NCBI RefSeq assembly: GCF_038404985.1
Contig: NZ_JBBKBA010000004.1
Span: 1-64,000 of the forward strand
Direction: 5' to 3'
Origin: Ferrovibrio sp. MS7
GTDB taxonomy: Bacteria > Pseudomonadota > Alphaproteobacteria > Ferrovibrionales > Ferrovibrionaceae
DNA length: 64,000 nucleotides
Part shown: positions 6,268 to 8,324 of the stretch, one piece after another
Layout of the letters: every line of letters starts with the position of its first letter
How positions within the stretch are numbered: position 1 is the first letter of the stretch
Notes under the pieces: model-generated
Databases searched by the model: none
What the model was told of the DNA's origin: nothing
The model's input: the letters and a program-made list of their open reading frames with translations, nothing else
Position numbers and translations under genes: made by a program

Positions 6268-6489
6268 TCAGGCTTCGGCCTGGGCCACGGCGCCAAGCGG
6301 CACGGCATGGCTGGCATTGTGGTTGGTGTTGCAGGCGGCGCGGATCATGCAGCGCACGTCACCAACACATTTACCGCATTGCGGCTTCTCGGCCAGATGC
6401 TTGTAGACCGACGCCACCGAACGGCAGCCCTGGTCGATGGCGCCACGCACATCGCGTTCGGTCAATCCATGGCACAGGCAGACATACAT
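6268..6489 (-). CDS. bfd: Bacterioferritin-associated ferredoxin
   Basis: A 73-residue [2Fe-2S] protein that reduces iron in bacterioferritin to release it. It begins MYVCLCHGLTERDVRGAI, giving the first two cysteine ligands (C4, C6), and the second pair is in PQCGKC. The start at 6489 was chosen because the family begins at this Met; the in-frame extension upstream is unlike Bfd and overlaps the control region. The tail after CNTNHNASH is longer than usual. It pairs functionally with bfr. Confidence 0.93.
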   Translation of the reverse strand: MYVCLCHGLTERDVRGAIDQGCRSVASVYKHLAEKPQCGKCVGDVRCMIRAACNTNHNASHAVPLGAVAQAEA

Positions 6490-6697
6490 CGGCGGCGGAA
6501 TCCGGTTGCGACTGATTATCAGACGCGAGGAATGTAGGGCGACTGCGAACCATTTGCAAGATGTCCTTGGCGCCAATTCTTCCAGCGGCTTAGATGCCGG
6601 GACGGGTTCCAGAGGCCCGCCGGGACCACCTCGCCCCCGCCCAGCCCGCTCTTGCCCTGGCGCCGCCGCTTGGCTAGAACGGCGCGGCCTTCCAGGC
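6490..6697. promoter_or_regulatory. bfd upstream region with two iron-box-like palindromes
   Basis: No gene seen. Positions 6510-6524 (GACTGATTATCAGAC) form a near-perfect palindrome with the TGATWATCA core common in Fur boxes. Positions 6543-6559 (CTGCGAACCATTTGCAA) share a spaced pattern with the element upstream of bfr. Both lie within about 70 bases of the bfd start, so iron-dependent control of bfd is likely by inference. Confidence 0.45.
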
Positions 6698-6765
6698 GGT
6701 GGATTGGCTCAGCGGATTTGCAAACCAAAGGTTAGACCGCCAATTCAATCGACGGCACGCCCCTC
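6698..6765 (+). pseudogene. tRNA-Thr-like remnant
   Basis: GGATTGGCTCAGCGG (6701-6715) matches the D-arm of the intact tRNA-Thr at 8250 with one mismatch. ATTTGCAAACCAAAGG then resembles its anticodon arm and TTCAATC (6744-6750) its T-loop. Eleven bases between two CAGCGG repeats of the intact gene are missing, as expected from slippage. It cannot fold as a normal tRNA, so I read it as a decayed copy. Confidence 0.5.
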
Positions 6766-6863
6766 TTACTTTTCCATGCATCAATCATTTTAAAAAAGAA
6801 TCGACGCGCCTAACCGTCGCGACGAAACACGACCAGAGGAATGTAACTTTCCGATAGGGTAAT
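6766..6863. other. AT-rich noncoding stretch
   Basis: Short AT-rich spacer between the tRNA-like remnant and the end of the signal-peptidase-like gene. No gene and no clear terminator seen. Confidence 0.4.
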
Positions 6864-7799
6864 TTACGAAACTCGCAATCCAATTCGCGCGATATGCGGA
6901 CTATACAAAACCGCATATGGCAGATCGCGAATTCTTTGCCTATCGATGAAATCAATCTTGGCAGAGTCCTTTCTGAAAGTTCGATTGTCGAAGAGATAAT
7001 GCACGTGCCCCATCCCTTGTATATTTAGCTGTATCTCTATTTTTGTTTTCTGTTCGCCGATGTTTTTGGCCAACTCCTCATCGAATGAGAAGTTAAAATG
7101 AAACGGCGTCATCCTTGATTCTTTGATGATATACTGCCGATCATTTAATACCTCGCGCTTAATCATGCGGCTCTGAGGTTCGTCGATGCTATACGTAGAA
7201 ATATCTGCCGGCCTTGAGCCTGAATTGACTTGCGAAGCATATATGTAGGACGGGTCAATCGCGCGGACAGGAAATGAACCAAAGAACAAATGGTCCTCCA
7301 GCCAAAACAGATCGCCATGCTTGATATTTCTTTGCGTATAATAATTTCGCTTAATAAGTAGAAGTTCACCTTGCAGGACATTCGGAAAACCAGCATCGGA
7401 TTTATTGTATTTTAAATACCATTTCTCATCTGCAATATATCTGAGATTTCCGTCGAGAAAATATACACCCCAAGACACAACCGCCAGCACCAATATTGCA
7501 ATCGAGTAGAGTGCGTTTCCTTCACTGGTCAGTGATTTCATTCCTCCATTTTTCTCTCTCAGAAGGAATGGAGCAAAGATGATAATCAATCCGAGGAAAA
7601 CAAAACTATACAAAGCCCCTATCAGTAAAAGTATGGCTGAATTCTCATCTCCAATATCAATGGTGCGTATGGCTGAATAGGCAAGCAGTGCAAAAACATT
7701 GGCGAGCGCGAGAAAACAACCAGCTCGACGATAGCCCAAATAAGCAATCCCAATTCCTGGCACAAACACGTTCAGCAGGGCAATTAGGAACCTTCTCAT
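6864..7799 (-). CDS. Membrane protein with degenerate signal peptidase I (S26)-like domain
   Basis: 311 residues. The N-terminus has the PGxGxxYxG pattern (PGIGIAYLGYRRAG) found in some LepB-like proteins, then membrane segments at about 28-46, 54-79 and 97-115. The soluble part keeps S26 boxes: SDAGFPNVLQGE (134-145) where PSxSMxPTLxxGD is expected, HGDLFWL (161-167) for RGDVVVF, and FDNRTFRKDS (270-279) for GDNRxxSxDS. The nucleophile Ser position holds Ala136, and the Lys-Arg of box D reads Val-Arg (FPVRAI). Probably not a peptidase. The start at 7799 overlaps the upstream small frame by ATGA; a Met at 7841 is the alternative. Base composition is strikingly AT-rich compared with neighbours, suggesting transfer. 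Confidence 0.75.
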   Translation of the reverse strand: MRRFLIALLNVFVPGIGIAYLGYRRAGCFLALANVFALLAYSAIRTIDIGDENSAILLLIGALYSFVFLGLIIIFAPFLLREKNGGMKSLTSEGNALYSIAILVLAVVSWGVYFLDGNLRYIADEKWYLKYNKSDAGFPNVLQGELLLIKRNYYTQRNIKHGDLFWLEDHLFFGSFPVRAIDPSYIYASQVNSGSRPADISTYSIDEPQSRMIKREVLNDRQYIIKESRMTPFHFNFSFDEELAKNIGEQKTKIEIQLNIQGMGHVHYLFDNRTFRKDSAKIDFIDRQRIRDLPYAVLYSPHIARIGLRVS

Positions 7800-7960
7800 G
7801 CGGAGCCTGATCTGCCGCAGTTTCCACCCAAATACTTGCAAACAAATTGCTGCCTGAGGCGGTCAAGCTGCACGGTCTTGTTGTTGGCAGATATATGGAA
7901 ATAGGAAGCGCGAACGTTAGGCTTTATCGCCCATTCGTCAAATGCATTCAGTATCGGCAT
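7796..7960 (-). CDS. Possible small protein upstream of the S26-like gene
   Basis: A 54-residue frame starting MPILNAFDEWAIKPNVRA and ending at a TGA that overlaps the ATG at 7799 in an ATGA arrangement, as expected for a translationally coupled pair. No ribosome site of note and no family recognised; three cysteines lie near the C-terminus or adjacent. It could equally be a chance frame in AT-rich DNA. Confidence 0.3.
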   Translation of the reverse strand: MPILNAFDEWAIKPNVRASYFHISANNKTVQLDRLRQQFVCKYLGGNCGRSGSA

Positions 7961-8249
7961 ATGATCACACTTGCGGCGAAAAATAGAGATTCAAAAAGAA
8001 AACGACACCCTAAAGAGGTAGCTTAAACTATGGCGCTATCGAGAGATAGACCAAGGTGAGCTTGATGCGTGGTCCCGGATGAGCATACCTCCCCCTCGTC
8101 TTCCAACTTCAGAAACAGGATTTTCGCCTTGTGTCGCTTCCTTGACGTAACTGAAACGCCCGAATAAAACCGCGGCTTCTCAAATTGGACGCCACCGTGA
8201 AGAATCGGGCGCGCCAAAACGTCGCATTGTTCTTTTTATTCAAACAGTT
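7961..8249. other. Noncoding islet segment
   Basis: No convincing gene on either strand; short frames here have no ribosome sites or family resemblance. Composition rises back to the window norm towards the tRNA-Thr gene. Confidence 0.4.
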
Positions 8250-8324
8250 GCCGGATTAGCTCAGCGGTAGAGCAGCGGTTTTGTAAACCGAAGGTCGGGG
8301 GTTCAATCCCCTCATCCGGCACCA
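8250..8324 (+). tRNA. tRNA-Thr (TGT)
   Basis: Complete cloverleaf: acceptor GCCGGAT/ATCCGGC, D-arm TAGCTCAGCGGTAGAGC, anticodon stem CGGT/ACCG with loop TTTGTAA (TGT), T-arm GGGGG TTCAATC CCCTC and encoded CCA. It stands alone and borders the AT-rich islet. Confidence 0.97.

What the first reader, a model, noticed from the sequence alone, without database searches (positions are those of the whole stretch)
6864..7799. Signal peptidase I homologue lacking its catalytic Ser and Lys
The protein keeps LepB-like boxes (PNVLQGE, HGDLFW, DNR...DS) and the PGxGxxYxG N-terminal domain, but Ala136 stands at the nucleophile place and Val-Arg replaces Lys-Arg. It may be an S26 pseudoprotease that binds signal peptides or membrane proteins without cutting them.
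Basis: partly seen in the sequence, partly recalled or inferred. Interest (0 to 1): 0.55.

Follow-up and report, generated by a model that had tools for sequence, protein, structure and literature searches.

The report
Dead signal-peptidase-like gene in tRNA insert
A bacterial membrane protein that looks like a signal peptidase without its two cutting residues sits alone in a small foreign DNA insert beside a tRNA gene; it is probably a non-cutting binder, but no close relative was found and its role is unproven.

Summary
The ORF is real: window 6864-7799 (-), 311 aa. Ala136 stands where box B has its Ser nucleophile and Val178-Arg179 where box D has Lys-Arg; no lysine lies between residues 160 and 214. 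S26 ancestry is likely, not proven: the only NCBIfam hit (18,950 models) is signal peptidase I, E 0.0047, below cut-off; 21 of 10,000 shuffles score as high on one S26 profile, 168 on another; hhalign against 13 LepB was negative; single-sequence AlphaFold failed. The host has an ordinary LepB. The gene is an AT-rich (42.5% GC against 63.9%) single-gene insert between a decayed and an intact tRNA-Thr copy; a same-species genome has a different insert at that tRNA. A second AT-rich, strain-specific insert in this genome carries another S26-like membrane protein (P0002) that also lacks Ser and Lys. Best reading: an S26-derived pseudoprotease, about three TM segments plus a periplasmic domain, carried as mobile cargo and binding without cutting, as proposed for streptococcal SipA.

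The parts
6864..7799 (-). CDS of the dyad-less S26-like membrane protein (P0001, 311 aa)
   Evidence: open frame longer than in any of 2000 shuffles
7449..7799 (-). N-terminal membrane part, residues 1-117: PGIGIAYLG segment and about three TM helices
   Evidence: hydropathy; AlphaFold helices 2-22, 24-46, 52-84, 92-125 (low confidence); topology is inference by eye
7365..7400 (-). box B-like stretch, residues 134-145 (SDAGFPNVLQGE); Ala136 at the nucleophile place
7302..7319 (-). box C-like HGDLFW, residues 161-166
   Evidence: BLASTP with P0002 covers residues 127-168
7263..7268 (-). Val178-Arg179 at the Lys-Arg place of box D
   Evidence: spacing and motif by eye; residues
6963..6989 (-). 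box E-like DNR...DS, residues 271-279
   Evidence: TIGR02227 match residues 235-291; HMM matches
6716..8249 (.). AT-rich insert (GC 0.445) that holds the gene, absent from the syntenic place of a same-species genome
6698..6765 (+). decayed tRNA-Thr copy at the left junction (ends approximate)
   Evidence: not called as tRNA
8250..8324 (+). intact tRNA-Thr (TGT) at the right junction
6802..6819 (-). terminator-like hairpin with T run, about 45 bases past the stop codon
   Evidence: 2 such sites found against a mean of 1.9 in shuffles, so weak

Best explanation
P0001 is an S26 (type I signal peptidase) descendant that has lost both catalytic residues. It is held in the inner membrane by an N-terminal part of about three TM helices, with the S26-like domain in the periplasm, and it acts by binding an exported peptide or membrane protein segment without cutting it. 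It reached this genome as the only recognisable gene of a small mobile insert at tRNA-Thr, so its role is accessory and not housekeeping. Shown: ORF, residues, AT-rich insert, tRNA duplication, strain-specificity, separate normal LepB. Inferred: S26 descent (likely), topology, periplasmic position, binding.
For: TIGR02227 signal peptidase I is the only NCBIfam hit, E 0.0047, residues 235-291. P0001 and P0002 align over box B-C, BLASTP E 1e-4 for the pair; 7 of 10,000 shuffles reach that score. HMM matches lie in S26 order: residues 133-165 and 266-293 on the HMM with P0002, 138-165 and 264-290 on the 22-sequence HMM without it, the latter with domain scores below zero. 21 of 10,000 shuffles score as high on an HMM of 9 S26 proteins without P0002, 1 of 10,000 with it. 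Ala136 and Val178 with no Lys in 161-213. Normal LepB in the same genome. tRNA-Thr insert. Second strain-specific dyad-less S26-like gene.
Against: hhalign of P0001 against 13 LepB gave probability 0.2%. No Pfam S26 match: only DUF6419 at E 0.72. Whole-genome searches of the own genome did not list P0001 with PF10502 at E 0.001 or with TIGR02227 at E 0.1, and P0001 as a single query did not find P0002 at E 1. With a 22-sequence S26 HMM 168 of 10,000 shuffles score as high, 82 with P0002 added. Solved structures: no S26 hit, only a rhodopsin at E 0.79. AlphaFold on one sequence gave no usable fold. Without an orthologue, selection on the protein could not be tested.
Confidence: 0.6

Rival explanations
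1. Not S26 at all: an orphan membrane protein with an unrelated soluble domain whose short motifs (PN..GE, GD, DNR) resemble signal peptidase by chance.
For: Negative hhalign, no Pfam S26 match, no S26 hit in PDB sequences, modest shuffle results with the larger profile, not listed by family searches of its own genome.
Against: The only NCBIfam hit is the family named beforehand, in a different part of the protein from the P0002 match, both in S26 order; similar size and layout to P0002, which passes the Pfam cut-off for S26.
Confidence: 0.2
2. A functionless gene: cargo of a decaying element at tRNA-Thr, frame still open because it arrived recently.
For: One tRNA copy has decayed; no other ORF of 80 aa or more lies wholly in the insert and none is an integrase; a same-species genome lacks it; no relatives to show selection.
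Against: 332-codon open frame against at most 269 in 2000 shuffles; the left tRNA copy has decayed while the gene stayed open.
Confidence: 0.15
3. An active protease that uses other residues, for instance Ser134 with a displaced base.
For: Ser134 is two residues from the nucleophile place and the DNR..DS box is kept.
Against: Ser134 falls on the first, non-nucleophile Ser of PSxSM; no Lys between 160 and 214 and no His at the place.
Confidence: 0.05

Closest known systems
SipA of Streptococcus pyogenes (signal-peptidase-like protein essential for pilus polymerisation; PMC4049620, passages read)
   Same: S26-type protein without catalytic Ser and Lys (Asp48 and Gly85 there); no peptidase activity found.
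   Different: SipA has a solved S26 fold and belongs to pilus gene clusters; P0001 has a larger membrane part, no solved fold, no partner gene in its insert, and is a lone insert. No sequence link between them was tested.
Bacterial type I signal peptidase LepB (PF10502, TIGR02227)
   Same: Order of box B-, C- and E-like motifs, a TM helix shortly before box B.
   Different: No nucleophile Ser, no base Lys, no PF10502 match and below the TIGR02227 cut-off, extra N-terminal membrane part.
P0002 of the same genome (G000:C1:2290520-2291455)
   Same: About 310 aa, about three TM helices then an S26-like domain, no Ser or Lys at the two places, AT-rich (GC 0.453) strain-specific insert.
   Different: 17% identity; passes the Pfam S26 cut-off (40.4 bits); no tRNA found there.

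Membership tests
Type I signal peptidase, S26 (active enzyme) | Ser nucleophile in box B | tested here: not met
   Ala136 in that column
Type I signal peptidase, S26 (active enzyme) | Lys (or His) general base in box D | tested here: not met
   Val178; no Lys 161-213; placement of box D by eye
S26 superfamily by sequence profile | match above curated cut-off of PF10502 or TIGR02227 | tested here: not met
   no PF10502 match; TIGR02227 16.8 bits against cut-off 47, not listed at E 0.1
S26 superfamily by sequence profile | colinear box B, C, E similarity beyond chance | tested here: inconclusive
   21, 1, 168 and 82 of 10,000 shuffles on four HMMs; hhalign negative
S26 superfamily by fold | S26 beta fold of the periplasmic domain | tested here: inconclusive
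   AlphaFold pLDDT 42.5 and 38.3 with one sequence; no fold search was run on such models
SipA-like S26 pseudoprotease | non-cutting role in assembly of a surface structure | not testable with these tools
   no other ORF of 80 aa or more wholly in the insert
tRNA-integrated mobile element | tRNA gene duplicated at the two ends of the insert and an empty or different allele in a close relative | tested here: met
   left copy degenerate
tRNA-integrated mobile element | integrase gene | tested here: not met
   no other ORF of 80 aa or more wholly in 6716-8249

The most novel reading that the evidence does not exclude
A fast-evolving kind of mobile single-gene cargo: dyad-less S26 membrane proteins (P0001 and P0002) that entered one genome twice at different places and serve an accessory role such as shielding export or signal-peptide processing from a phage, a rival or an inhibitor.
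Probability: 0.2. Interest if true: 0.65.

Novelty: new variant of a known kind. Interest (0 to 1): 0.35.

Why it matters
Non-cutting signal peptidase relatives in bacteria seem little studied: in the listings seen here SipA was the only worked bacterial example (openly licensed papers only). Two such genes as strain-specific inserts in one genome would suggest that the S26 scaffold is reused as a mobile binding module. If the fold is wrong, this is only one more orphan membrane gene.

Tried and rejected
Looking for relatives of P0001 led nowhere. Whole genomes: 61, 385 of the class, 398 of the phylum; each sample includes the own genome and the samples overlap. The only other rows were G039 (E 5.3e-4, 83 residues, a stop inside; seen) and G639 (E 0.006, two stops inside), both taken as chance. 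Own genome at E 1: only itself. Pattern scans: genome contigs 46 and 211 stretches, none confirmed; viral contigs 3, 142 and 8 stretches, none confirmed. Plasmids: no match; phages: one record at E 2. PADLOC: none; PHROGs: E 0.3, not used. A two-row profile of P0001 and P0002 in 398 phylum genomes gave, besides the own genome, L087 (an S26 protein with Gly at the nucleophile place) and a broken frame; neither is a full-length relative.

TIGR02227 in 41 genomes: 7 of the 19 rows below the cut-off were fetched and read; by my reading three look LexA- or repressor-like, three TraF-like, one chance. None is a P0001 relative. The other 12 were not read.

P0002: in 61 genomes it matched, besides itself, 5 genomes. 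Two of those loci read as ordinary LepB (L006, L010); the rest were not resolved. On plasmids it matched 92 records, those listed being mostly plasmid lepB; in phages none.

No fold search was run.

The first shuffle control failed because gap characters got into the file (found); one search is the valid one. Searches were scripts that stopped on errors. HMMER listed only 6374-7228 of the 10,000 shuffles per model, and BLASTP 668 entries; the unlisted ones are taken to score lower.

A defence role was considered; PADLOC was negative for P0001 and P0002 and for the other inserts' genes tested. A viral scan with the 257-aa protein of the L061 insert gave one locus with a 20-residue match (L089), not followed.

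Full report
What is there. The finding's ORF is real: window 6864-7799, minus strand, 311 aa. The frame is open for 332 codons, while 2000 shuffles of the surrounding insert gave at most 269. A terminator-like hairpin lies about 45 bases past the stop, though such sites are as common in shuffles; the one promoter-like site found is on the other strand.

Is it S26? The evidence is moderate and mixed. For: the only NCBIfam hit is signal peptidase I, E 0.0047, residues 235-291, 16.8 bits against a cut-off of 47. P0002, a second protein of the same genome that does pass the Pfam S26 cut-off, matches P0001 over residues 127-168 with E 1e-4 for the pair. HMMs built here match P0001 in two stretches in S26 order: 133-165 and 266-293 with P0002 in the HMM; 138-165 and 264-290 on a 22-sequence HMM without it, with domain scores below zero. 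Against 10,000 block-shuffled copies, 21 score as high on the HMM of 9 short S26 proteins, 1 on that HMM plus P0002, 168 on the HMM of 22 S26 proteins, 82 on that plus P0002; the BLASTP score from P0002 is reached by 7. Against: hhalign with 13 LepB gives 0.2%, Pfam has no S26 match, family searches of the own genome did not list P0001 (PF10502 at E 0.001; TIGR02227 at E 0.1), P0001 alone did not find P0002, PDB sequences have nothing of this kind, and AlphaFold without an alignment gave pLDDT 42.5 for the whole protein and 38.3 for residues 97-311. I put S26 descent at about 0.75.

Are the catalytic residues gone? If it is S26, yes. MAFFT and the HMM put Ala136 in the Ser column and Ser134 on the first Ser of PSxSM. 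Box D was placed by eye: Asp163 to Arg179 is 16 residues, as in a Bacillus LepB (L068). Whatever the exact placing, there is no lysine between 160 and 214, and the histidines of that stretch are 161 and 170. The same genome has an ordinary LepB with Ser and Lys, in a gene order that I read as pdxJ-acpS-lepB-rnc, which by recall points to an alphaproteobacterium. So signal peptide cutting need not depend on P0001.

Membrane part. Hydropathy (two overlapping windows merged) and the low-confidence AlphaFold helices give four hydrophobic segments in residues 1-120. The first holds PGIGIAYLG and has Arg on both sides; by eye I infer a re-entrant hairpin, then three TM helices and a periplasmic C-terminal domain, as in LepB. 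P0002 can be read the same way.

Where it sits. The gene has GC 0.425 in a window of 0.639. A genome of the same species, G756, has the two flanks at 97-98% identity but not the gene. In the window the order is left flank, a decayed tRNA-Thr copy (about 6698-6765), the 1.5 kb insert, the intact tRNA-Thr (8250-8324), right flank. In G756 (L061) the order is left flank, intact tRNA-Thr, a different 1.6 kb AT-rich insert with two main ORFs, a partial 3' tRNA copy, right flank. The alignment of the decayed copy to the tRNA is matched by 1 of 5000 shuffles; comparable scores occur at a few other places of the window, but this one lies at the junction. Two other genomes of the genus have at this tRNA a long ORF, of autotransporter type in the copy tested (L062, Pfam E 3.8e-28), and no second tRNA copy was seen there. 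So the tRNA is an integration site and P0001 is strain-specific cargo; no other ORF of 80 aa or more lies wholly in the insert. P0001 is in 1 of 10 genomes of the genus (G756 is 72% complete but its syntenic place is held).

A second case. P0002 (GC 0.453) lies in an AT-rich stretch (GC 0.469) absent from the same place in G756; none of the rows for the 9 other genus genomes covers L002 1179-2544. Its box B reads PSELSLPN, with Leu at the nucleophile place, and box D LISRIAAIPGD, with Ser for Lys. Identity to P0001 is 17%. Two dyad-less S26-like genes as separate strain-specific inserts in one genome is the most interesting part of this result. Whether they share a function is unknown.

Relatives. 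None found; searches and counts are in Tried and rejected. These were pattern scans and samples of genomes, so rare or diverged relatives can have been missed.

Known precedent. SipA of Streptococcus pyogenes lacks both catalytic residues, has the S26 fold, shows no peptidase activity and is needed for pilus polymerisation; the authors leave its mode of action open and mention a chaperone-like role (PMC4049620, passages). A 2026 paper treats it as the signal-peptidase-like example of the superfamily (PMC12984324, passages). My other searches (listings with starts of abstracts) showed no bacterial case of the present kind; a listed survey of functional and non-functional proteases of Babesia (PMC8621943) was not opened. 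Only openly licensed papers were searched.

Verdict. Observation confirmed; interpretation partly supported. New variant of a known kind, interest 0.35.

Noticed in passing
L002:1354-2289 (-), G000:C1:2290520-2291455: P0002, a second S26-like membrane protein without Ser and Lys at the two places, in an AT-rich strain-specific insert; it also matches phage family phrog_15562 of unknown function (E 2.8e-7).
   Followed up: partly
L061:3264-4848 (G756): Different AT-rich insert at the same tRNA-Thr, with 257-aa and 133-aa ORFs; no Pfam or PADLOC match. The 133-aa one looks nuclease-like by eye only.
   Followed up: partly
L062:784-1926 and L063:5595-6749: Long ORFs at the same tRNA-Thr in two other genomes of the genus; the L062 one is of autotransporter type, the L063 one resembles it by eye.
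   Followed up: partly
L087:1471-2001: S26 protein of another genome with Gly at the nucleophile place (TADGMSPTLLYGD) but the Lys kept (WIKR), read by eye.
   Followed up: no
window 8070-8083: Inverted 14-base copy (93%) of the 3' end of the tRNA-Thr inside the insert; may be a trace of an older event or chance.
   Followed up: no
L064 and hits: Signal peptidase relatives are common on plasmids: 413 plasmid records matched the Citrobacter plasmid lepB, many listed as lepB.
   Followed up: no
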